A stretch of DNA of 64,000 bases from Coptis chinensis (lineage: Eukaryota; Streptophyta; Magnoliopsida; Ranunculales; Ranunculaceae). Positions 3,334 through 63,283 of the stretch are shown here, piece by piece. Below the pieces are notes generated by a model that was given only the letters and a program-made list of their open reading frames with translations, did not search any database and had not been told where the DNA came from. How positions within the stretch are numbered: position 1 is the stretch's first letter; each line of letters begins with the position of its first letter. Made by a program: the position numbers and the translations under genes. The stretch is taken from contig CM027378.1 in the NCBI GenBank assembly GCA_015680905.1, positions 45,573,501 through 45,637,500 on the forward strand. The letters run 5' to 3'.

Positions 3334-5518
3334 TTAACAAAATAACAACAGTTTATAATAATTCATGCAAAAACAACAGTTTGCCTTCTCTGGACATGTC
3401 CTCTTGTTATGCCCAGCTTTCTTGCATAGTGTACAATACATGATTCTTCCCTTTCTGCTTACTTGTGAGCCAACTCCTTCTACTTCATGTACCTCTTTCC
3501 TTCTTGCTTTCTTGGTCCTTCCAAGCATTCTTCTTAGTGCTGGAGGTAAGAACTTCTGACAATTTGTTTTAGGCCATAACATTTCCCCATTCAATGGCTG
3601 CAAGTAGAAGTCATATATTTTCAAGTTTGTTTCTTTCTTGAACCAATGAGCAACATACTTATCAGGGTTTTCATGAAGGTGATATATGGCTGAAACTGCA
3701 TGAGAGCAAGGTATTCCTAACAAGTTCCACCCCCTACATGAGCATGACTTCTCCTTCACATTTACTACAAACCCTTTACATGAATCAGGTACTGCACTAG
3801 TGTTACTACTCTTCACCTCATACTTGGAGTCACCAATATAATGTGCTCTCCAAAACCTTGAATGTACTTTGCTCTTCTCTAGTTTCTCTCTAGCTTTGGG
3901 ACAAAGATCATCACTCCACTTCTCCATTAATTCCCTCTTCTTCCGACACCTAAGTGCTTGATTGATTCTTATGTCTTCTAGCATATCAATGATGGACTTT
4001 CTTCTTGCATCAAGTATGACACCATTAAAAGTTTTACACATATTTTTTTCCACTGAATCACTTGAAGATCTAAAATCAAAAAGGCCCTACACCAATATCT
4101 TTGTGGGTCTTGCTTCATGAGTGTATCATATGCGGTGGTGAGGGCTTTCTTCAACTCATCGGTGACAATATCCCATTCTTGTGGAGTCCTACTCTTGGCC
4201 ATTCTCCGAACAAATTCTTCAACCGAGTTCCACTATGAAGCTTTCTAAAGTTGGCATAGATATGCCTATCACAACATCTGTGCTCAACCAATGGTAACAA
4301 CAATTCAATTGCTTGAATGAGTCCCTTCTGTTGATCAGTGATCAATGTCAACCCAATCCCATCACCAATTCCAAGATCTTCTATCAGCAGTTGTAAAAAC
4401 CAAATCCAATTTTCCTTGTTTTCCACACTAACAACAGCCTGAAGCTATTGGGAACATTTGATTGTTCCCATCTCTCCCAACAAAATTGTAAGAAGCTCCC
4501 TTTACAAAAGCTTTTCAAAAAGCTCCATCAACCCCTATTACATGCCTGCATCCTGCCTTCCACCCTCTTTTAAGTGCAGCAAAACAAACATAAAACCCTT
4601 TAAACCTACCTTCATCCACAACTATCTTGCAAGTAGTTCCCCGGGTTGGACTTGTACACTTCACTCCATAGTCCCGAGTTTTACCATAAAGGGTTTTAAA
4701 GATCCTTCAACTTCCCCATTGCTTTTCTCTTTGCCCTTAAGCCTTTGCATTTTTGTGACTTCAATACCAAACTTGTGCATCACCTCTCTTGGAACTCTCT
4801 CGGTGTCCATTTGGGGTTTGTAGTGATCCCAACAAAGTAATGCTTAGCTAACCATGCAACATTTATAGTCAGTAAGTTTCACGGACCTTGAACATTCATG
4901 CTTAGATTTCAAACTCTTAATTTGAAAACTTTTTTCACACTTGCATCCAAGTAGCCCACAATCTCCAATCACAACCCTTACACACACTTCCAATAACTTA
5001 GTACCACTCCTAGGGAACCTTATGTCATACCCATGAGTCACAAAGATAAGCTTTCAACAATTCCTTAAGCTCTTCTTTAGACCCAAACTTCATCCCAATA
5101 ACAGTTCAACTCGAAACAAATCACAACCAAGAGGCAAGCTAGGAAACCTAGAATTAACTCTTTTAATCCCACCTTCTTCATCATCAGTTATAGGGCTGTC
5201 ATAATCTGATTCACTAGCATAATCACTATCATTTTCTATAAAACCAGTAGTAACACCAAGCTCAGTTGGTTGGTTCCCATCAGTTTCTGCATTAGCCTCA
5301 ACATTATCTGCTTCTATATGATCATGCTCAGTTGGTTGGTTCCCATCAGTTTTTGCATTAGCCTCAACTTCAACTTCTATATCATCCCCAGTTGAACCTT
5401 TCTCCTTCTTCTTCTGTTGTCTTAACTGAATTCTCTTTTTCCTAAATTCAATTCTCTTTTTCCTAACCTCTATCAGTTCCACATCAGCATCATCATTATC
5501 ATCACTAATATGATCCAA
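3334..5518 (-). pseudogene. MULE-1 transposase (MuDR family), multiply frameshifted
   Basis: In gene order (descending coordinates) the domains are as follows. An acidic/lysine-rich N-terminus with a duplicated ~24-residue segment lies at 5518-5090. A MuDR N-terminal zinc-like region (FxIKSLxxxHxC type) lies near 4844-5041. The MULE DDE region lies around 4151-4700 (DGAFLKS, then LITDQQKGL, then the HRCCDRHIYANFRK stretch). A SWIM zinc finger CxCx12CxH lies at ~3700-3770, and a CCHC knuckle (CTLCKKAGHNKRTC) lies near 3390-3440. The frame changes at least near 5090, 5040, 4840, 4440, 4200 and 4050, so no full-length product can be made without several splices or recodings. Plant MULE transposases with SWIM and CCHC fingers are normally 600-900 aa, so the parts amount to a nearly complete but decayed gene. 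Confidence 0.85.
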
Positions 5519-33800: not shown

Positions 33801-36800
33801 TTCCCAATCATTCAAAGCCCTGTGCAGTCCAAGATTCGCCTCCCTCGGATCTAACCATACAATCAAAAATGGGTTTCCCTTTGAAACTGGATAGACCAAA
33901 CAACAAAAGAAAATCAGAGGCTAAAGCCCCACCACCTGTCCAATGATCCTCCCAAAAAAGAATCTCATCTCCTGTTGCAAAACTGTATCGAATACCTCTT
34001 AAGAACTAAGGGAGCACCTTAAATATTGCCATCCTCACTCCACACCCATAAGGTATGGAAACCGGACCACTCTCCCACCCAAAATGTCGAGACACAACCA
34101 CCTTCCTCCAAAGACTATTTCTCTCTTCCCCAAAACGCCATAACCACTTACCCAAAAGCGCTTGGTTGAACGCTACCATACTACGCAAACCCAAACCGCC
34201 AACATTTTTAGCCAAACATAGAATCTCCCACCTCACCAAATGATACCTATGTTGCTCCTCGGAATCATCCCATAAAAAATTCCTAATGATGCTCTCAATC
34301 CTATTAGCAACTCTCTTTGGAATGACAAAAAGAGGCAAAGTATACTGGAAGAGAGGACAAAGTACTCTTAATCAAGTCCAAACGACCCCCTTTCGAGAGA
34401 TACCTACACCTCCACTCTACCAGCTTATGTTGGAATCTCTCAATAACGGGATCCCAAATATATTTAGAACGCACATCGGCCCCAAGAGGAAGACCCAGAT
34501 ACATACAAGGAAACGAATCCGCTTGACAATCTAACACCGACGCAAGACGGCACAAAAAGGGAACACTCCCCATACATCTTGCTCTTGGCAAGATTCACAC
34601 TAAGCCTAAAAACAACAAAGAATTCCCCTCAACCATCTAACTTGACCCACCTCCGCTCCAAAAAAAATCAAAGTATCATCAGCAAATTGGAGATGAGAGA
34701 TGCGGACCATGTCACTACCCACTCTAAAACCTTCTAAGATACCCCTCTAGTTGGCTCTCGAAATCATTCTACCAAAAACTTCCACCACCAAAATAAAGAG
34801 GAGGGGAGAGTGGATCACCTTGCCTAATACCTCTCGAACTCTTAAAGAAACCTGTTGGAAATCCATTTACTAGAATTGAAAAGGATACCGACGATATACA
34901 CTTCCACACCCATCTTCTCCATTTCACCCCAAACCCCATCCTCCCTAAGACATAGCCAAGGAACCTCCAACTAACATGATCATATGCCTTCGTTAAATCA
35001 ACTTTACAAACAATACCCGGCTCATCACTCCTCCGCTTATCATCAATAGTCTCATTAGCTATAAGGATTCCATCGAGAATTTGTCTATCGCTAATGAAAG
35101 CCCCTTGCTCTTGAGAAATAATAACTTTTTTCATCCTCAAAGACAAAACCTTAGATAAAATAGATAAAATCTTGTAAGCACTCCTGATCAAACTAATCGG
35201 TCTCAAGTTACTAATATCATCCGCGTCACTAACCTTAGGAATAAGAGCAATAAACGTGTTGTTCAAATGATGTGCAAGGAAACCCGTATCAAAGAAGTCT
35301 TTCACCATGCTCATAAAATCCACACGAACAATCTCCTAATACTTTTTGTAAAACTCAATCGGAAACCCATCTGGTCCTGGGGATCTATCTCCCCCCAAAC
35401 TAACAATAGCTGCCCACACCTCATCTTCCTCAATAGAACACTCCAAAGATCTTTTCTCCTCATCGGAAATGCTATCCAAACACAAATCATCCACCGTCGG
35501 TCTAAAGCGTCCAGGTGCAGTATACAAATTACTATAGTAACCCACAATACCTTCTCTGAGGTTATCCTCTCCTGTAACTTCACGGCTTTCTATTATCAAA
35601 TTCTCCAAAAAATTAACTCGGTTCCTAGCTTTGGCCAGTTAGTGGAAAATTTTAGTACATTGTTCATCCTCAATTGTCAACTTTACCTTTGCTTTTTGTT
35701 TCCAAAAGATTTCCTCTCTTCTTGCCGAGACTTGAAGCTCATCCCTCAAATTTCTCTCTTCATCGGAAAGAAAATCCCCCTCCTCTGTCAAGTCTAAATC
35801 CCTAATATCCTTGAGAAGCTCTTTTTTCCACCTATCCATTCTCCCAAAAACCTCTCTATTCCACACTTTAATCTTTTCTTTAAGCGCCTTCAACTTTTTT
35901 GAAAAAATAACACCAGGTCGCCCTTCCAAAGAGAACGAGTTCCACCAGTCCTTAACATTCTCCTTAAAATTAGGATCGTCAAACCACATGAGTTCCAACC
36001 TAAAAGGGGTAGGTCTTCGCGACCCACTTTCATTATCAAGGACAATGGGATGATGATCAGATGCCGAACTAGGAACAATATTCTGAGACAAACGAGGCCA
36101 ATCTTCCAATCAGCACTCACCAAAAAACGATCAAGTTTAGAGAGAGGGGTTATCTTGCCTACTAGACCACGTAAATTGACCACCCTTAAGAGGTAAATCT
36201 AAAAGCTCGCAACGAGTAATAAAATCATCAAAACTCACCATCATCGAATCAATATGACAACCGCCCCTCCTCTCGCTCGACAACCAAAAGACATTAAAAT
36301 CACCACCTATGCAAGGTAAGCGCTCCCAAAAGCAAAAGTACCATCCAATCCGGCCCAAAATTCTTGAATATTCAAACCATTGGATGGACCATACACACCG
36401 GTCACAACTTTACGCGTAATCTCGCCCCTAAAGAGGCAAATGACCGATACTGTAAAGGTGCCCACTGCAGTTTCAAACACCTCAACCTTCCCTTTGTCCC
36501 ATAAAATGCACACATCTCTAGTGTTGACTGCTGGAAGAAAATGCCCGCCCATATCAATAATACCCCAAATGTCATCTACCAGACTTTGGAACTCCTCTAG
36601 CTTGGTTTCCTAAAGGATCACCGTGATAGCTCTTGTTTTACGGAACAATCTTTAATTGACGGTCTCTTCAACACATTCCCTAAACCTCTTACATTCCACA
36701 AAAGGATCTTGTGATTCATTTAAACACATTAGATTTTCCTCTTCTAATACTACCTTCAACATCATCGCCATAATTAATAGACGACGTGAGTCTCTTCAAC

Positions 36801-40100: not shown

Positions 40101-40401
40101 TGTCCCAGGAATCAGGTTATGGGTGTCTTATTCTAGATGTACTAGGATAGTTTAGTATTTCAGCCATTTAGAATCAGGTAACCATTAGATGGTGCCACAT
40201 ATAACGCCTAGATATAATGTTATAGCAGCGAGAGAGAAAGCAAAGAGCTATATGTACTTAACAACAATATAGAGACAAAGGAGAGAATAAAGTAGACAAA
40301 AGAAAATAGGCTCTGATTAAATTGTTCTGGTTCATTTCCCATTTATCACTTGTTAAGTGAATCTCTTATCAAAATGTACAATATACTGAGGACAGTACAA
40401 T
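40101..40401 (+). repeat. 5' LTR of the gene-capturing element
   Basis: 301 bp, matching 42841-43138. Its inner boundary is set by the PBS that begins at 40402. Confidence 0.9.
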
Positions 40402-40566
40402 TGGTATCAGAGCATTCGAGATGATGGAGATGCAATATGGGGTTTCTCAACTAGCAGAAAGAGTGGAGAGAGAGGCTCAAACATGGGAGAGTTATGAGAA
40501 AAGGATGGATGAGCGATTTGACAAGCTATTTAAGCTGCTAAATGATATGGAGTATACAAACTGATT
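40402..40566 (+). pseudogene. gag-like N-terminal fragment after the PBS
   Basis: After the PBS, an open stretch reads MEMQYGVSQLAERVERE, then a WESYEKRMDERFDKLFKLL coiled-coil-like segment and a stop (near 40562). This resembles the beginnings of gag proteins in plant gypsy-type elements with this PBS. It is cut short where the captured GCP3 sequence begins. Confidence 0.5.
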
Positions 40567-40599
40567 TAGGACTTTCTTCAAACGCTGAGACACCATTAG

Positions 40600-41612
40600 A
40601 GACCTTCATTGAAGCTAAAGCCAACTTAGAAAATACACTCAAATGCTCAATGAAAATACCATCAACTTTAATAGACAAATCATCAATAGCATAATCAATT
40701 AAACAAAATCTAGGCCACAAAGGTAAATCGTCCGATGCTTTAACTTCTGCATATTTGAATGCCGACTTTTCATCAAAAAATGGTATTGGTAGTGCTGAAA
40801 ACAAATGGGGTTTACTTCATTTACTTAAAGTTGTTCCTAATGAACAAATAAATGAGAAGAAATCTGATTTCATGGTTTCTCCCAGTTTTTCTGTATCGAC
40901 AATTACCGATGGAATTCCGCTTTTATTTGACGATTCGAATAATGGGTATCGTAGAACAATAGAAAAGAGTAAACAAAGTAATGAGTTCTTGTTTGTTTTG
41001 GAGTATGGGGATTTACTGAAAGAAGAGAGTGAGGTTAATGAAGCAATTTTTTGTGGAGATGTTTTACATGCTTGTAAAGGAATTAATGGGAAGTGTGTTG
41101 TGGAATTTGATAACAGTTTAGATGGTTGTGTTGTTTTAGATTTAATTAAAGGGCTAAGAGCAACAAAAGTAATGGTTATGAAGTTTTGTGAATTAAGGCG
41201 ATTGTTTGATAGAGGAAAATGTTATGTTTATGGAAATGTGGATAAGTCACTAGTTGGAGATGTTGGAACAGTTCGACAAACTCTTCGTGCCGCATTGCAA
41301 GATGAGCTTTCTGTGTATTGTAAGTTATCGGCAGTGCTTAAAGTACAATTGTTGCATCAGGTGGTGATTTTGGCGAATTACTTTTCGTCGAGAAGGTTGT
41401 TGGTTTGGTTTGTGAAGCAAACAATTAAGATGAGATGGATGGCTATTTTGGTTGATAATTGTAAGGTTTTGAAAGGTGTTGCAATGGCTGGTGCAATTCA
41501 TTATCATGCTCAGTACGGTGATTCATTGGTGCAAGAGTTTATGTGGCGTCTACTTTTCTGAGCATGCTCTCCAATTTTTCAATTGGTGAGAAGTTGGGTT
41601 TTGGAAGGGGAG
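40600..41612 (+). pseudogene. Captured fragment: gamma-tubulin complex component 3 (GCP3/SPC98), N-terminal part
   Basis: A continuous frame with few stops (for example TGA at 41559-41561) contains, in order, GHKGKSSDAL, SSKNGIGSAENKWGLLHLLK, VLHACKGINGK, GLRATKVMV, DVGTVRQTLRAALQDELS, WFVKQTIKMRWMAILVDNCK, GVAMAGAIHYHAQYGDSLV and VRSWVLEGEL. These match the first half of plant GCP3, the gamma-tubulin ring complex subunit that nucleates microtubules, up to the VRSWVLEGEL block. The rest of GCP3 is missing and a different gene follows in frame. No introns are seen, which suggests an mRNA origin, although I cannot state the parental intron structure. Confidence 0.85.
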
Positions 41613-41855
41613 CTTGCAGAAGCAGCCAAAGCATCTATGGGACAATATTTTTCTATAAGTGACTTGACTAATATCGATCAATTTGTCGGGAGGCTCACGA
41701 TCGTTGCTGAGTACAGAAAGAGTTTACATGGATATTTGGAGAATAAAATAAATGACAACACACCTATTTTGGCTTCTCTTATTGGTGAAATTGTTGGGAT
41801 TCAACTGATTTCTCATACTAGTAGTCTCCCAAATTTGGTCAGGTGTCTTCCTTTT
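41613..41855 (+). pseudogene. Captured fragment: NOP56/NOP58-type nucleolar protein
   Basis: Directly fused in frame to the GCP3 piece, the peptide EAAKASMGQYFSISDLTNID, then AEYRKSLHGYL, ASLIGEIVGIQLISHTSSLP and NLVRCLP follows the Nop domain of plant NOP56 (EAAKASMGQDIS..., AEYRKxLxxYL, ASLIGExVGARLISHAGSLxNLAKCP). NOP56 is a core protein of box C/D snoRNPs. The similarity stops after the NLxKCP motif. Confidence 0.82.
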
Positions 41856-42100
41856 ACACCTTCAGTTCTACTTGCTCATAGTTTTAAGAAGCAGCTGAGT
41901 ATTGGCCCAACACTAACTTGTTTTCACATTGATGAAAATACGAGCACTAGTGAAGAAAATGAAAATTTGGAGGAGGTACTTAATTTACTAAATGAGGGAA
42001 TCAGGCCAAGGGTACTAGCTTATCTAATAGAAGACCACTTGTTGACTTGACTAACAACAAATTTTTTCCCTCTATTTCTGTTGCCAAGAATCGTGATAGA
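41856..42100 (+). pseudogene. Captured fragment of unknown origin
   Basis: The open frame continues from the NOP56 piece (FTPSVLLAHSFKKQLSIG, TLTCFHIDENTSTSEENENL, EEVLNLLNEGIRPRVLAYLI) to a stop at 42050. I do not recognise it. It may be one or two further captured pieces. Confidence 0.4.
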
Positions 42101-42720
42101 GGTAGCATTGAATCTGTGAACATGGGAGAAGTTGTTAGCAAGCTCTACTTGTGTGAAAACTTATCATTGGTCAATGACATGTGCTTTGCCATCACTTTTG
42201 ACCGTACAACTTGTGGTCCTCTTATACTTGCTTGTAGAAAGGGATGAACCGGCATCGAAGGCCAAGCAGAAAGTTTTCTTGACATAATTACTATGGTGCC
42301 TATTGGCGTTTTCAAAGGAATCACTGAAGATGCTGCTAAAGTCATTGGTGGTTTAGATCCTAAGGTAGCAGATAGAGATGCTTCCATGAAACAAGTGAAG
42401 AAGCTATATAAACCTTTTTGTGCATGTGATTGCACAATGCTCAAGATCAATTTGCCTGCTGAAACTTCTGATAATCTGTTGGTACCCGCTGATGTGAAGT
42501 TGCACTACGCTACTTGCTGCCAGAAAGAGATCTTCGCATTTCATTATTCATCCCAGGAGGACCCTGGTGTCGTTACTGCTGCTAAAAGATGATTTAAATC
42601 ATATTGGTCTGGCTAATACGCTTAGATGCATGATGAATGGTGCAAGATTAGTTATAGCTATGGCTACTATGGATGTCATCAAGTTGCATTGTGAAAATGA
42701 TACCTTGAAACTCTGGTGAT
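42101..42720 (+). pseudogene. Captured fragment: succinyl-CoA ligase (ADP-forming) beta subunit
   Basis: Across frameshifts and stops: GEVVSKLYLCENLSLVNDM, AITFDRTTCGPLILACRKG, VPIGVFKGITEDAAKVIGGL, PKVADRDASMKQVKKLYKPF, CDCTMLKINLPAETSDNLLV, then QKEIFAFHYSSQEDP and LNHIGL...MATMDVIKLH. This is the ATP-grasp region of the mitochondrial TCA-cycle enzyme's beta subunit (…VPIDVFKGIT, LYKLFCDCDCTLLEINPLAET). A stop replaces the Gly after ACRKG (42244-42246). There are several lesions and no introns. Confidence 0.85.
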
Positions 42721-42840
42721 TGAAGCTGCAAAAAGGATAGATAGGCATCGACTAAGGACTGGATATCATGTACAAGAAACAGAAGGTTCCCAAACTTTCA
42801 TCCTTGAGGACAAGGACGTTTGGAGGGGAAGGTATTGTCA

Positions 42841-43138
42841 TGTCCCATGACTCAGGTTATGGGTGTCTTATTCTAGATGTACTAGGGTAGTTTAGTATTT
42901 CAGCCTTTTCGAATAAGGTAACCATTAGATGGTGCCACATGTAAGGCCTAGATATCATGTTATAGCAGGGAGAGAGAAAGCAAAGTGCTATATGTACTGA
43001 ACAACAATAGAGACAAAGGAGAGAAGAAAGTAGACAAAAGAAAATAGGCTCTGATTAAACAGAGATTGTTCTGGTTCATTACCCATTTATCACTTGTTAA
43101 GTGAATCTCTTATCAAAATATACAGAGGACAGTACAAT
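42841..43138 (+). repeat. 3' LTR of the gene-capturing element
   Basis: 298 bp, matching 40101-40401. Preceded by the polypurine tract at 42811-42832. Confidence 0.9.
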
Positions 43139-54934: not shown

Positions 54935-56653
54935 ATGGCAGGAGCAAAGAAAACAAAGGGTGGAGCTACCACGCGCAGCGTCGCCATCAGAGAAGAAGTG
55001 CACGAGATGCATGAAGGGGGTGAGAATGTCGGTTGCCAAGATGCGAATGATCCCCCCCAAGGACTTATGACAAGCACCGATGGACCAGTTGTTCCCGAAG
55101 CAGGTCCCAGGAATAACACTCAGGAGGAACGTCAAAATGGCTAGAATGCTGTCCTCACCAACCTAGAGTTTGTTCAGGCGGTGCAGGCTCTGGAACAGCA
55201 AAGGAGCAACCTTGAGCGAGAATTATAGCTGCTAAGGCACTTATATCAGTTTGACACGGGGAAAAAGTCACTCATCGATCTTGATGATGACGACCCTCCG
55301 AAAGGTGGTCGTGCTAGGAACCCAAGGCGTAGGGACCCGGTTAAGTAGCGAGCTATTTAAGTCGAGAATCTGACAACTTCGGATGAGGACTCGAGAAACG
55401 ACCTCGAGCGAGTCCAGCGACCGACGGGATCGTGATGTTGACCCTCGACACCGAAAAAGAACTTATAACAGGAAACTTTCTACCAAAGAAAGTGCATGGG
55501 AAATTGAGAAGAATGACTTGATCCGTCAGATACATTGGATGATAGGCAAGGGGAGAAAAATGCAAGACTCCCTTGTTCAATTCGCCATAATAGGAGCAGG
55601 CAGATCTCCTTTTGCATCACGAGTGATGAGGAAGCCATATCCCCATGGGTACAGACAACCGAAGTTCAGTGTCTTTAGTGGCAAGTCAGATCCGGTCGAT
55701 CACGTATTCAGGTATCGTGCCACTATGGGACAATATAAGAGATATGACCATGTCATGTGTCAAGAGTTCAAAGCCTCCCTGTCTGGATCTACGCTCCAGT
55801 GGTATCACAGATTACCTGAGCGGGAGGCCTCAGAAGAACTATTTAGGACCTTCATAGATAGGTACTCATGCAACAAGCATCAGCCAAAATGGATCGATGC
55901 ACTGTTCAACATCAAGAAAAAGGATGGAGAGGCGTTAAGATCCTACATGCAATGGTTCATGGAAATTTCAATCCAAATAGAGTCTTGTGATGAACAGACT
56001 GCTATAATAGCTTTCAAACAAGGATGAAAACAATGCCTTATTCAGATCTCTCTCTAGGAAACCACCCCGCGATTTAGAGGAACTCCTTGACAGGGTTGAA
56101 ACTCATGCGGGGTGGGAAGAAGATGTCCTGAACAGATGTCAGGAAGCGAAGAAGACTAGTCGGACAGTTCCTGGGCTTCCTCGAGAAGGGAATGGAAACT
56201 TTTTCCCCTAAAAAATCGAAGAAAGATCGTAATCGTAATCGCCAAAGGGCCGAATCTCCATCAAAGGGGCGAATGCCCAGAGAGCAATACCAAAATATAG
56301 CCAGTAGTGCAGATAGAAAACCACAGAAGAAGCCACGTGTGGAAGGAACTGAAGAAGCTCTTCCCTCGATGGACAGAAACTTCGCCCTTCTGAACAAAAT
56401 GCCAGATGAGGTTCTGGACTCGATAAAAAATCAGAACTACCTCAAATGGCTAGCTCTACTGAAGCCAGGCTCCTTAGGTACTAGAGACCAAAGGACCTAT
56501 TACAAGTTCCATAAGAGTAATGGCCACAGCACCAGAGCATGCAGGACCCTAAAAAATGAACTACAGGATCTGATTGAAAGGGGGTATCTGAAGCAATTTG
56601 TGGCACACCTAACGGTAACGGATACAACCCGAGGAGATCAACCGCCGGTTTAG
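54935..56653 (+). pseudogene. gag of the Tat element
   Basis: The N-terminal part (54935-55144) is followed by stops. The capsid-like Retrotrans_gag region lies at 55383-56027, including YRQPKFSVFSGKSDPVDHVF, KASLSGSTLQWYHRLPEREA, FIDRYSCNKHQPKWIDALFN and KKKDGEALRSYMQWF. After a frame change, the basic linker and a knuckle-like YYKFHKSNGHSTRACRTLKN follow, with ELQDLIERGYLKQFV (to 56653); the usual first Cys is a Tyr. This would be the nucleocapsid/virus-like-particle protein. It is broken by stops at 56028 and elsewhere. Confidence 0.8.
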
Positions 56654-56824
56654 AATCCCCATGTAATTGGACTGCTCAATGGCCGACTCCAGATAAATAT
56701 GATTTTCAGAAAAGCAAGTAAATGGAATGGATAGATCACTAAAAAGGGTGCGTGATATCAAATGCGTATCGCCAAGTAAATGAGGATCATGAACAGCGAG
56801 CTGACCACATGAGCTCAGGTTAAC

Positions 56825-57223
56825 GTGGTACCCCACAAAGATCCGTTCATCCTCTTCACTGAGGCTGACTGTTGCAGCATCCAGAGCCCCAATGAGGATG
56901 CGCTTGTTTTGACACTTCTTTTTGGAGATTATGATTTGCATCGCATATTGGTTGATCTAGGCAGCTCAGCAGATGTGCTATACTACGCCGCATTCAAAAA
57001 GCTGCAAATTCCTGACTCTGGAATGGTCGCCACCAACTCCAACCTACATGGATTCAGTGGGGACAAAGCTCTGACAGTTGGGGAGATCCAACTACCCGTA
57101 GCTACTGGTTCGGTAACTCTCATCATAAACTTTGTCGTAGTAAAAGCTAACACACTTTATCATATGATCTTGGGCAGGACCTGGCTGCACAGACTCCGAA
57201 CTGTTCCTAGCACCTATCACTAA
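56825..57223 (+). pseudogene. Aspartic protease domain
   Basis: VLTLLFGDYDLHRILVDLGS then SADVLYYAAFKKL corresponds to the retropepsin active-site block; the triad reads D-L-G rather than the usual D-T/S-G. HMILGRTWLHRL is the conserved C-terminal block. The domain ends with a stop at 57221-57223. Confidence 0.75.
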
Positions 57224-57434
57224 TGTCTGAAGTTCTCGCATAACGGGACAATTGAGGTGATCAGAGGGGATCAGGTGGCTGTCAAAGCATGTTACGCGCT
57301 GGCGACGAAGCATTCCCCACTCCCTTTTGAACTAATGGAGGCGAGGCGACCCGCCAAATAGCAATTACAGCTGGATCCACCTCTCCCGGACCTAGTCCTA
57401 CGAGAGAGGGAGGATCCCCCCCTCACTGGAGCCA

Positions 57435-58990
57435 TTAAAGGAAGTGGAAATTGTAGGTGGTAGCTCGCCAAAAACCACTTTCATCGGCACCTTGTTGAGT
57501 TTTGAAGAGCGCCAAACTTTGATACAGTTCCTCCGAGAGCACAGAGATGTGTTTGCTTTGCTCATTCGAAGAAATGCCAGGAATTAACCCCCACATGGCA
57601 TGCCACCAGCTCAATGTCCGCAGTGATGCAGTAGTAGTCAAGCAGAAGCCGAGAAGGATAGGTGTTGACAGATCCAACGCGGTAAAAGCTGAAGTTGAAA
57701 AACTAAAGGCAGCTAATTTTGTCAGAGAAATCAATTTCCCTACCTAGATTTCTAATATTGTTCCTGTAAGAAAGAAGAATGGGTCATGGAGAATCTGTAT
57801 TGACTTCACGGATCTGAACCGTGCATGTATGAAAGACAGCTACCCTCTGCCACAAATTGACAAGTTGGTGGATGCGACGGCTGGACATGAACTATTATCC
57901 TTCACAGATGGGTTGTCAGGTTACAACCAGATCCCCTTACATGAGGAAGACCACAAGCATGCCAGTTTCACAACCGAGGATGGTCTGTACTGCTATCAGG
58001 TTATGCCATTCAGATTGAAAAATGCAGGAGCCACATACTAGCGTTTGGTAAACAAGATGTTTGAAAGATTAATAGGCGACATTGTGGAGGTGTATGTAGA
58101 CGATCTCCTAATCAAGAGTCTGAAACGGGGAGATTATCTCTCCCACTTAAAATGTACATTTGATGTTCTTCGAGAATATCGCATGAAGCTTAACCCTGTG
58201 AAATATGCTTTCGCTATATCATTAGGAAAGTTTTTAAGGTACCTAGTTACTAAGAGAGGGATTGAGGCGAATCCAGATCAGATCCAAGCGCTCATAGAAA
58301 TACCCTCACCTAAAAACATGAAAAAGATTTAAAAAGTTACAGGCAAGTTAGCAGCTCTGAACAGGTTCATCTCCAAGAGTTCAGATAAGTGCAAACTCCT
58401 CTTTCAGTTACTGCGAAAGAACACCTCCTTCGCATGGACGAAAGAGTGTCAAAAGGCGTTTGATCAACTCAAAACATACCTGGGGGCACCACCAATCCTT
58501 TCAAAGCCTGTTGAGGGAGAAGTCCTGGGTCTTTATCTCTGTTCATCTAGCTACGACATCAGTTATGTACTGATATGCGTGGATGAAAAGAAGGTTGAAA
58601 AATCTGTCTATTTCTTGAGCCGGACGCTCCTACCAGCAGAAACAAGGTACCCTAAACTCGAAAGAGTCGCTTTAGCACTTGTTTTTGCCGCAGAGAAATT
58701 ATGACCGTACTTCCAGTCCCACACCATCAGAGTGATCACAGAGTACCAATTGCGATCAGTTCTGGAACAATCGAACAGGTCAAGAAGGCTTGCTAAATGG
58801 TTTGTGCAACTATTAGAATATGATATTATTTACGTCCCCAAAATCTCAGAGAAGGGTCAGGCACTAGTAGAATTCTTGGGAGATTTCCCAATAACCTACA
58901 TGGGGTACGATTCAACCACCCCCAATTCCGATGATGGCATCCTGCCTGAATCTCCAAACTCCTATCCAGACCCATGGAAGTCGAGCTCCT
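57435..58990 (+). pseudogene. Reverse transcriptase and RNase H domains
   Basis: Pieces in one frame are separated by TAG/TAA/TGA stops (57746, 58039, 58330, 58702): an N-terminal MPGINPHMACHQLNV block, FVREINFPT, RKKNGSWRICIDFTDLNRAC, SYPLPQIDKLVDATAGHELL, SFTDGLSGYNQIPLHEED, the catalytic YVDDLLIKS (~58096), and an RNase H-like region to FLGDFP. Catalytic residues of RT appear intact, but several stops prevent translation. Confidence 0.85.
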
Positions 58991-59400
58991 GATGGCGGCT
59001 GTTTGTGGATGGATCTTCAAATGATAGAGGTGCAAGAGTTGGAGCTGTGTTAGTTACTCCTGACAATATGCAGCTGGAGAAATCCATCTGATTAGGTTGG
59101 AACGCCTCTAACAATGAGGCAGAGTATGATGTAACACTTGCTGGCCTCATAATGGCCCTCGACCTGGGCCTAACACACCTCACAGTTTTTAGTGACTTAC
59201 AGCTGGTTGTGTTCCAAGTTGATGGAGGGTATAAGGACAGAGACGAACGAATGGCCAAATACCTGGAACTGTTAAGGGGTCTTTAAGGAAAGTTCGAGAA
59301 CATTCAGTTTTATCAGTTGCCTCGATCCGAAAATCGACACGTAGATGCTTCGGCAAATGCCTTGATGTTGGTCAACAATGAGTCACGTTCCATCCCTATA
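58990..59400 (+). pseudogene. Second (archaeal-type) RNase H domain
   Basis: WRLFVDGSSNDRGARVGAVL, NNEAEYDVTLAGLIMALDLG, TVFSDLQLVVFQVDGGYKD and LPRSENRHVDASANAL carry the D-E-D pattern of the extra RNase H characteristic of Tat retrotransposons. The SDSQ block reads SDLQ. Stops occur at 59089 and 59284. Confidence 0.8.
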
Positions 59401-60680
59401 CATTTCCAGGAGAAATCTAGCATTCAGATCCCAGTTACAACAGTCATTGTTCCAACCATTACTCCAAGTTGGATGGATCCATATAAGTCCTACCTCAAAG
59501 ACGGAACACTCCCTGAGGATAAGAATGTAGCAAGGCGTCTGCTTGCAAAGATACAAAGATTCACCCTCGTTGAAGACGATCTATACAAGAAGTCCTTTCT
59601 GGGACCTCATCTCAGATGTCTCTCCCCACACCTCGCTAAACAGGTTATTCGAGAAGTTCATGAAGGAATTTGTGGCAACCATGCTAGGGGTAGAACACTA
59701 GCTCTCAAGATCCTAAGGCAAGGGTACTTTTGGCCTTATATGCAAAATGATGCACAGGTTTTTGCCCGCAAATGTGAAAAATGTCAATGATATGCTCCCC
59801 TAATCCATGCTCCAGCAACAGAATTGCACCCATTGGCCAGTTCATGGCCATTTGCACAGTGGGGAACTGACATCGTAGGACCTTTACCACCTGCTCCTGG
59901 CAATGTCCGATTCCTACTAGTTGCGACGGATTACTTCACCAAGTGGATAGAAGCAATTCCCCTTATCTTCATTCGAGAACATGACATCAGAAAGTTCATT
60001 TGGAACAACATTGTCTGCAGGTTTGGCATACCCAAAGTTATCATCTCAGATTATGGGCAACAGTTCGCTGGAGGATTGGTCACTGAACTCTGTGAGGAGT
60101 TTCACATTACCCATCTGTTCTCAACTCTAAGGTGCACACAAGGCAATGGCCAGGTTGAAGCCTCTAACAGGGTCATCTTGGATAACATGAAGCGTAAATT
60201 AGACAATGCAAAAGGTTTATGGGTTAAGAAACTACTTAAGGTCCTATGGGCATACCGAAATACACCCAGACAGTCAACTAGTGAATCACCATTTTCACTG
60301 ACCTATGGAACGGAGGCTGTTATACCTCCAAAACTGGTAGCTCCCACTCAAAAGTCAGATGTTGTACACACTCTAGATAATGAGGAGTTGTTATGTAGCG
60401 AAACCTAGATGAAAAACGAGAAGGTGCCGCACTTCGCTTAGCTGCTAACCAGCAGATTCTGAAGAGATCATACAATAAGAGTCTGGACTCGATCTTTCAA
60501 ATCTGGAGATCTAATTTTGAGCGATATCCCAGAGCCCAACGACAAGCTTGGGCCCAATTGGGAAGGACCATACATCATCGACAAGGTTGGTCAAATGGGT
60601 TTTTATTATCTCCGCACTGTTGAAGGAGACGTTCTTGTCAAACCATGGAACACGCACCTTCACAAGTACTATCAGTAAAT
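59401..60680 (+). pseudogene. Integrase: HHCC, catalytic core and GPY/F module
   Basis: The zinc-binding module is REVHEGICGNHARGR, then YFWPYMQNDAQ and CEKCQ (59650-59790). The core runs from WGTDIVGPLPPAPGN (~59861) through ISDYGQQFAGG (~60043) and GNGQVEASNRVILDN (~60144), giving the D, D, E residues. The C-terminal GPY/F module is LGPNWEGPYIIDKV with WNTHLHKYYQ (60552-60678). Stops lie at 59788-59790 and 60406-60408, and the final module is in another frame. Confidence 0.85.
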
Positions 60681-62469: not shown

Positions 62470-62611
62470 AAAAATAAGGGATTTTTCGTTGCTTGATTTC
62501 TGAATTTTCTTATTATTTTATCTATTATGGATATTTAACTACGATAAAGGTAAAATAAAGTTCTCGAGATTTCTTTAGAATTTGAAATAAAATATCAAGT
62601 CATCGATGAAA

Positions 62612-62699
62612 CGAAAGAGAGGATTCAAACCCTGCATTTAATAACTTCGCATACAACGGATTAGCAATCCGATGCTTTAGTCCACTCAGCCATCTCTCC
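62612..62699 (-). pseudogene. trnS-GCU: trnS-GCU (plastid-derived), mutated
   Basis: On the minus strand GGAGAGATGGCTGAGTGGAC leads to TAAAGCATCGGATTGCTAAT (anticodon GCU), a variable arm with changes, and AGGGTTTGAATCCTCTCTTTC. It is 88 nt long as expected, with T-arm substitutions (TTTGAATCCTC for TTCGAATCCCT). Confidence 0.88.
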
Positions 62700-63283
62700 C
62701 AATTGAACAAAGGATAATTACTATGTTACGTTATACATGAAGTAAAGAAAAAGTCTTTCTTTATTCTATAGATCTGAGATACAAATTTTATCCGTTTTTC
62801 AGCAATTTAATTCAATTACATTTAGATAACGGGAATACCCACAATAGAAAAAAAAAAAAAAAAAAAGTAAAAATAAATGAAGGTAAAGAATACCTCTTTG
62901 ATTTCGCATTTAAAGCTTCTTTTATTCCCCTGCACAATCGGTCAAGACGGTCGATTACCTAGCCGGGCCGTTTATTGTTTTGTTACAATAAATCATACAT
63001 GAAATAATTTATCTGACTTTGAAAACAAAAATACATTGAATCAACAACCACAAATTTTTTTTATGTTCTTACTTCAGTGGTTCTTTCGGGCTGCACCTGT
63101 CACTAAACAACTCACCCAAGCAAGATAGAACTCGTTATTTCAATAGGCTTTCATTTGCCTATCCCCCACACCATAAAACGCGTCAACATTTGAATTTCAT
63201 TATTTTGTTCCAATCCTATCTTGATTACGTATGATGCTCTTGTTCGACAAATGACCCACTCATATACAATAATTACATTGTAG

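What the first reader, a model, noticed from the sequence alone, without database searches (positions are those of the whole stretch)
40101..43138. LTR retrotransposon whose interior is a chimera of at least three unrelated host genes
Seen directly: two ~300-bp LTRs, a Met-tRNA-type PBS, a polypurine tract and a GTAG flank on both sides. Between them are a short gag-like start, then GCP3 (microtubule nucleation), NOP56 (snoRNP), an unidentified piece and succinyl-CoA ligase beta (TCA cycle), all in sense, intronless and partly fused in one reading frame (GCP3 to NOP56 to unknown). Gene capture by LTR elements is known (maize Bs1 is the classic case), but several genes in one small element is uncommon. 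This would be a transduplicating retroelement built by repeated template switching on packaged mRNAs.
Basis: partly seen in the sequence, partly recalled or inferred. Interest (0 to 1): 0.92.

Follow-up and report, generated by a model that had tools for sequence, protein, structure and literature searches.

The report
Jumping element assembled from host genes
In a plant genome, a small copy-and-paste jumping element has filled itself with spliced pieces of several unrelated plant genes, and its relatives carry other combinations, so the family seems to have gone on collecting and shuffling host genes while mostly keeping them readable as protein.

Summary
Best-matching source loci lie on four contigs of the window's own 935.6-Mb genome (inferred Coptis chinensis); source introns are missing for NOP56 and the ligase. 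The GTAG flank is not a sound target-site duplication. Other copies carry different cargo: spliced BUD23, an ankyrin gene, a LINE-like piece. Seven of seven other copies that I delimited have perfect 5-bp duplications; one has identical LTRs. Over 13 copies the GCP3 frame holds 8 stops where 48-69 are expected without selection (0 of 500 simulations as low, six settings), and shared indels are mostly multiples of three, yet amino acids drift almost freely. Best reading: repeated template switching onto packaged mRNAs in an element mobilised in trans, with selection for an open frame more than for sequence. The kind is known (maize Bs1, soybean GmaRetroS15); changing cargo and frame-keeping make this a new variant.

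The parts
40101..40399 (+). 5' LTR, first ~5 bases lost or mutated (other copies and the 3' LTR begin TGTCATGTCCC)
40402..40413 (+). primer binding site TGGTATCAGAGC (initiator Met-tRNA type; the assignment is recalled knowledge)
   Evidence: the same or a one-base variant at this place in sister copies
40421..40564 (+). remnant of gag start
   Evidence: 52% over 42 aa, E 1.3e-13, to the gag start of a gag-pol element L023
40629..41615 (+). GCP3 piece A (codons ~36-373 of Thalictrum GCP3; may begin near 40560)
   Evidence: source gene C7:~873.1 kb
40542..42050 (+). one frame running through GCP3, NOP56 and into the fourth sequence; stops at 40692 (TAA), 41559 (TGA) and 42048 (TGA)
41609..41864 (+). 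NOP56 piece, two source exons joined, the 74-nt source intron absent
41860..42126 (+). piece of a fourth host sequence (unnamed; D-box-like RRPLVDLTN, motif recalled), source locus C9:5738.7-5739.0 kb
   Evidence: no Pfam or PDB match
42125..42698 (+). succinyl-CoA ligase beta piece, five source exon blocks (C5:94243.0-94245.5 kb) contiguous; one stop and at least one frameshift
42688..42785 (+). GCP3 piece B (codons from ~459 in Thalictrum numbering): the other cargo lies between two GCP3 pieces
42783..42835 (+). end of the internal region of a Ty3/Gypsy-type element with polypurine tract GGAGGGGAAGG (42822-42832)
   Evidence: 90% over 60 nt to L023
42836..43136 (+). 3' LTR

Best explanation
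A non-autonomous LTR retrotransposon that lost gag-pol and uses the enzymes of related Ty3/Gypsy-type elements in trans. A GCP3 mRNA segment first replaced the interior. In later cycles reverse transcriptase jumped, at short shared words, to other packaged mRNAs (NOP56, the fourth sequence, succinyl-CoA ligase beta; in other lineages BUD23, an ankyrin gene and a LINE-like RNA) and back into the element RNA. Copies also exchange segments with one another; the window copy looks like such a mosaic. Lineages that kept transposing are mostly those whose chimeric frame stayed open, so translation through the cargo seems to be favoured, while residue identity is hardly constrained. Shown: spliced multi-gene cargo, family, TSDs in sister copies, cargo variety, mosaic identity profile, deficit of stops and of shared frameshifts. 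Inferred: trans-mobilisation, template switching as the step, order of capture, reason for frame-keeping.
For: Spliced cargo: NOP56 source intron absent at the exact site; ligase source in five exon blocks contiguous in the element; in sister S4b most of a BUD23 cDNA matching nine exon blocks at C1:4997.8-5002.3 kb; in S2a an ankyrin gene matching four exon blocks at C3:119299.7-119300.3 kb, with similar blocks at three other loci. Four source contigs for the window copy. Seven of seven delimited sister copies with perfect 5-bp TSDs, LTR K2P 0 to 0.051. Different cargo on one GCP3 scaffold. Shared words AAGGAGA and CTTCA at two junctions. A gag-pol relative, L023, shares LTR, gag start and tail. 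Frame: 8 stops over 13 copies against 48-69 expected, 0 of 500 simulations as low in each of six settings; indels shared by two or more copies 15 of 20 multiples of three, single-copy 11 of 31, LTR control 8 of 119. Ks to source larger for GCP3 (0.47-0.66, 13 copies) than for NOP56 (0.19-0.37, 9 copies): GCP3 first.
Against: The window copy has no clear TSD. The youngest copy S6 (identical LTRs) has frameshifts in GCP3 and NOP56, so an open frame is not needed in every cycle. The ligase part is not kept in frame. Residue constraint is not wholly absent: 2 of 10 copy pairs differ less at conserved sites (p 0.007, 0.004), 8 do not; against the source gene 2 of 4 copies do (p 4e-4, 5e-4). Close pairs have Ka/Ks of 0.40-1.00 over 41226-42011. 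No transcript, protein or new insertion was seen. That the joins were made at RNA level can only be inferred.
Confidence: 0.81

Rival explanations
1. The cargo pieces were captured as described but drift neutrally; the open frame is chance or inherited from the source genes.
For: Ka/Ks between copies for GCP3 (0.62-1.30 in the pairs listed) lies around the stop-free neutral expectation, means 0.70-0.81. S6 and S2b carry frameshifts.
Against: 8 stops against 48-69 expected along the tree from an open start; 15 of 20 shared indels are multiples of three against 8 of 119 in LTRs; single-sequence simulation of the window GCP3 piece: 2 stops against means of 4.8-11.4, with P up to 0.14 in the mildest setting.
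Confidence: 0.12
2. A chimeric host transcript or retrogene arose first and was captured once, whole.
For: The GCP3/NOP56 junction is shared by several lineages, so that junction probably arose once.
Against: Cargo differs between copies on one scaffold (BUD23, ankyrin, LINE-like); GCP3 lies on both sides of the other genes; Ks to source differs between GCP3 and NOP56.
Confidence: 0.05
3. DNA-level assembly: nested insertions, gene conversion or segmental duplication inside an old element.
For: S7 spans 14 kb between its LTRs with unaligned stretches, probably nested inserts; the window copy is a mosaic.
Against: Spliced pieces, four source contigs, all in sense, chimeras between perfect TSDs in seven other copies.
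Confidence: 0.02

Closest known systems
Bs1 of maize
   Same: LTR element with exon-only pieces of three host genes forming a chimeric frame (passages in PMC13317346, PMC4717578; two primary papers asked for were not held)
   Different: Other genes; here cargo between two GCP3 pieces, different gene sets in sister copies, frame-keeping measured over 13 copies
GmaRetroS15 and other gene-carrying TRIMs (soybean)
   Same: Intronless fragments of three host genes in one small LTR element; copies with 5-bp TSDs (passages in PMC4717578)
   Different: The gene-carrying TRIMs there are 1,172-1,449 bp; here ~3 kb with 303-370-bp LTRs in the delimited sister copies, a gag remnant and changing cargo
Gene-capturing LTR retrotransposons of maize, rice and sorghum
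   Same: Host gene pieces between LTRs (PMC2774510, PMC3726574, passages)
   Different: In maize B73, 425 elements with gene fragments and none with more than one standard nuclear gene under the authors' conditions
LTR-mediated retroposition
   Same: Template switching at microsimilarities between element RNA and packaged mRNA, possibly several times (passage in review PMC5408686)
   Different: Here repeated over a family's history, the products being themselves mobile

Membership tests
LTR retrotransposon | paired LTRs with TG...CA ends, PBS, polypurine tract | tested here: met
   the start of the window copy's 5' LTR is degraded
LTR retrotransposon | target-site duplication | tested here: inconclusive
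   window copy: AGTAG against ATGTA, not met on its own; 7 of 7 delimited sister copies met
Non-autonomous Ty3/Gypsy derivative | shares termini and gag start with a gag-pol element but lacks pol | tested here: met
   L023 has gag and pol frames with LTR hits at both ends, one cut by the fetched end; Ty3/Gypsy naming by recalled domain order, no Pfam scan of L023
Non-autonomous Ty3/Gypsy derivative | mobilised in trans | not testable with these tools
   inferred
Bs1-type multi-gene transduplicating element | spliced pieces of two or more unrelated host genes between LTRs | tested here: met
Bs1-type multi-gene transduplicating element | chimeric frame transcribed and translated | not testable with these tools
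   no RNA or protein data; frame openness only
TRIM | small size as of the gene-carrying TRIMs in the cited survey (1,172-1,449 bp) | tested here: not met
   3.0 kb
L1-type retrogene | poly-A tail, no LTRs | tested here: not met
   cargo runs into LTR-element sequence at 42783

The most novel reading that the evidence does not exclude
A recently active retrotransposon lineage that keeps gathering and swapping spliced host genes and is selected for having a long translatable frame whatever it encodes: an open frame is itself a replication trait of a gag-less element (for instance by protecting its RNA from decay of prematurely stopped messages or by coupling translation to packaging). It would be a natural generator of in-frame multi-gene fusions.
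Probability: 0.45. Interest if true: 0.88.

Novelty: new variant of a known kind. Interest (0 to 1): 0.74.

Why it matters
It gives a datable family in which exon shuffling by reverse transcription can be followed step by step, with source loci in the same genome. It separates selection for an open frame from selection for a protein, which would make testable why gag-less retrotransposons keep reading frames, and how often multi-gene fusions arise this way outside grasses and legumes.

Tried and rejected
Rejected on the way: (a) my first reading that 41865-42011 is NOP56 after a 38-codon deletion; the DNA source showed a fourth sequence. The combined simulation and the NOP56 part hold about 49 codons misassigned in this way, so I rely for stops and for NOP56. 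(b) The GTAG duplication. (c) Strong purifying selection on the GCP3 residues, suggested (unchanged at 100 of 143 highly conserved sites against 58 of 119) and by two of four source comparisons; between copies only 2 of 10 pairs show it. (d) Host as Thalictrum from best protein hits; genome size and contig length point to Coptis chinensis.

Led nowhere: protein search with the fourth sequence, Pfam and PDB for it, one viral-contig protein scan and two LTR-word scans of viral and prokaryote contigs, an RT domain for the LINE-like insert (LINE naming is recalled resemblance only). Literature searches for other multi-gene LTR elements and on Bs1: of what I opened, Bs1 and the soybean TRIMs fit. 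Listed but not opened, among others: PMC3538342 (transduplication in a fungus), PMC6431247, PMC7693803.

Full report
Check of the finding. The two repeats of about 300 bp are real: 15 differences in 292 aligned sites and 3 indels, K2P 0.053. With recalled rates of 7e-9 to 1.3e-8 per site and year that is about 2-4 million years. In the window the element's blastn matches are itself and its LTR pair. GCP3, NOP56 and succinyl-CoA ligase beta were confirmed against solved structures and Pfam. A protein search found the GCP3 piece closest to Thalictrum, Ranunculus and Aquilegia (217 hits at E 0.001 or better, best 120 listed); a NOP56 search put Coptis chinensis first of 24.

Host. The window lies at C2:45573501-45637500 of a genome of 935.6 Mb. 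Contig C6 has the length given for the Coptis chinensis NOP56 protein's contig, and a published Coptis assembly is 936.6 Mb with nine chromosomes (passages of PMC8172641). I therefore infer Coptis chinensis. Passages of two Coptis genome papers found by my terms mention Gypsy elements but no gene capture; I did not read them whole.

Anatomy. In sense order: 5' LTR, PBS, a gag start 52% identical over 42 residues to that of L023, a related element with gag and pol frames, GCP3 piece A, NOP56, a fourth sequence, succinyl-CoA ligase beta, GCP3 piece B, 60 nt 90% identical to L023 with the polypurine tract, 3' LTR. The fourth sequence has a source locus on C9, 81% over 273 columns, whose open frame has no Pfam or PDB match and breaks inside the matched stretch; that it is an expressed gene is not shown.

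Source genes and introns. GCP3 is on C7 and shows no intron in codons 1-145 and 156-622, with a frame break between. NOP56 on C6 is split into exons; the 74-nt intron inside the captured part is absent in the element at the exact site. Succinyl-CoA ligase beta on C5 gives five exon blocks which are contiguous in the element. At the GCP3/NOP56 border both sources read AAGGAGA, at the NOP56/fourth-sequence border both read CTTCA. I did not test these words against chance.

Family. The LTR has 24 matches in the genome and GCP3 piece A 53, both lower bounds. Seven other copies were delimited; 7 of 7 have perfect 5-bp duplications; LTR K2P is 0 (S6), 0.0033, 0.0066, 0.0109, 0.0266, 0.0356 and 0.0509. 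S6, S5, S2b, S4 and L051 carry the window's gene set. S2a, S7 and L040 have GCP3, a LINE-like insert, GCP3 and NOP56. S2a also has an ankyrin gene (Pfam E 2e-6), and the matches of its DNA fall at the S7, L040 and L042 loci too. L042 has GCP3, NOP56 and the ankyrin gene. S4b has GCP3, most of BUD23 and succinyl-CoA ligase. BUD23 (nine exon blocks on C1, 86-98% identical, partial matches elsewhere) and the ankyrin gene (four blocks on C3, 90-95%, with similar blocks at three other loci) are spliced too. The family thus carries at least six host sequences. The ankyrin gene resembles plant XB3/XBAT proteins by recall only. I found no LTR in the fetched stretch of L042 and only parts in L027, L043 and L051.

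Mosaic. Against S6, S5, S2b and S4, in 150-column windows of a global alignment, the window copy is 40-69% identical in the LTRs (local blastn hits 75-79%), mostly 89-90% in the gag start, 72-77% in most GCP3 windows before 41225 and 81-96% from 41225 to 42871. This suggests exchange between element lineages.

Frame without sequence. For 13 copies with mapped GCP3 codons (268 columns present in at least 7) a tree was built and neutral evolution simulated from an open start: 8 stops observed, 48-69 expected, 0 of 500 simulations as low in each of six settings; 8 of 13 copies have none. L035 and L036, near-source copies without an LTR hit, were left out of the tree, as were S7, L037, L041, L044, L045 and all unfetched matches. 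Of 51 distinct indels against the source, those shared by copies are multiples of three in 15 of 20, single-copy ones in 11 of 31; indels between nine LTRs in 8 of 119 (p 1e-10 shared against LTR, 1.7e-4 against one third, 0.006 against single-copy). LTR indels were counted over all pairs and are not independent. Ka/Ks between copies is 0.62-1.30 for GCP3 and 1.23-2.19 for NOP56 in the pairs listed (Ks above 0.1); stop-free neutral simulation gives means of 0.70-0.81 and 0.77-0.86 with 95% ranges up to 1.13 and 1.63. Closer pairs over 41226-42011, partly fourth sequence, give 0.40-1.00. To the source, GCP3 gives 0.35-0.53 in these 13 copies, a value that includes the constrained host branch. 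Conserved GCP3 sites are spared in 2 of 10 copy pairs and 2 of 4 source comparisons. So the frame is kept better than the residues. Against this, S6, the youngest copy, has frameshifts, and the ligase part is broken in frame.

Order of capture. Ks to source is 0.47-0.66 for GCP3 (13 copies) and 0.19-0.37 for NOP56 (9 copies), and the other genes lie between two GCP3 pieces, so GCP3 probably came first; different synonymous rates of the two source genes are not excluded. BUD23 is among the pieces closest to its source, which fits a late capture.

Known or new. Bs1 of maize holds three host genes (passage in PMC13317346). Soybean TRIM GmaRetroS15 also holds three, intronless (passage in PMC4717578). 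In maize B73 none of 425 gene-bearing elements held more than one standard nuclear gene under the authors' conditions (passage in PMC2774510). Multi-gene LTR elements are therefore a known, seemingly rare kind. What I did not find described in the searches is a family with changing multi-gene cargo on one captured scaffold and a measured selection for an open frame; most listed papers were not opened, and the library lacks most subscription papers.

Noticed in passing
55374-60408: Remains of a larger Gypsy-type element: gag, integrase zinc finger and integrase core (Pfam).
   Followed up: no
34769-36109 minus: Reverse transcriptase frame of LINE type (RVT_1, E 7.5e-15 for 34769-35335; LINE naming recalled).
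   Followed up: no
3334-4086 minus: SWIM zinc-finger frame, probably from a MULE transposase (MULE naming recalled).
   Followed up: no
62610-62700 minus: tRNA-Ser (GCT) predicted.
   Followed up: no
C78, C3 (three places), C4, C1 of G000: A ~100-base piece of GCP3 (query 139-243 or 139-235) recurs at 85% identity at six places, perhaps in another repeat.
   Followed up: no
L048 1-2001: The source GCP3 gene shows a frame break between codons ~145 and 156; assembly error or real.
   Followed up: no
L011, L012, L013: S5, S2b and S4 carry the GCP3-B stretch twice, about 118 nt apart.
   Followed up: no
L052 ~640: The source frame of the fourth sequence breaks where the element copy reads on; pseudogene or assembly error.
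   Followed up: no
L035, L036, L037, L041, L045: Further GCP3 copies without LTR hits, some close to the source gene; origin not worked out.
   Followed up: partly
L020: A related LTR pair around gag and part of pol, seemingly with pol sequence missing.
   Followed up: no
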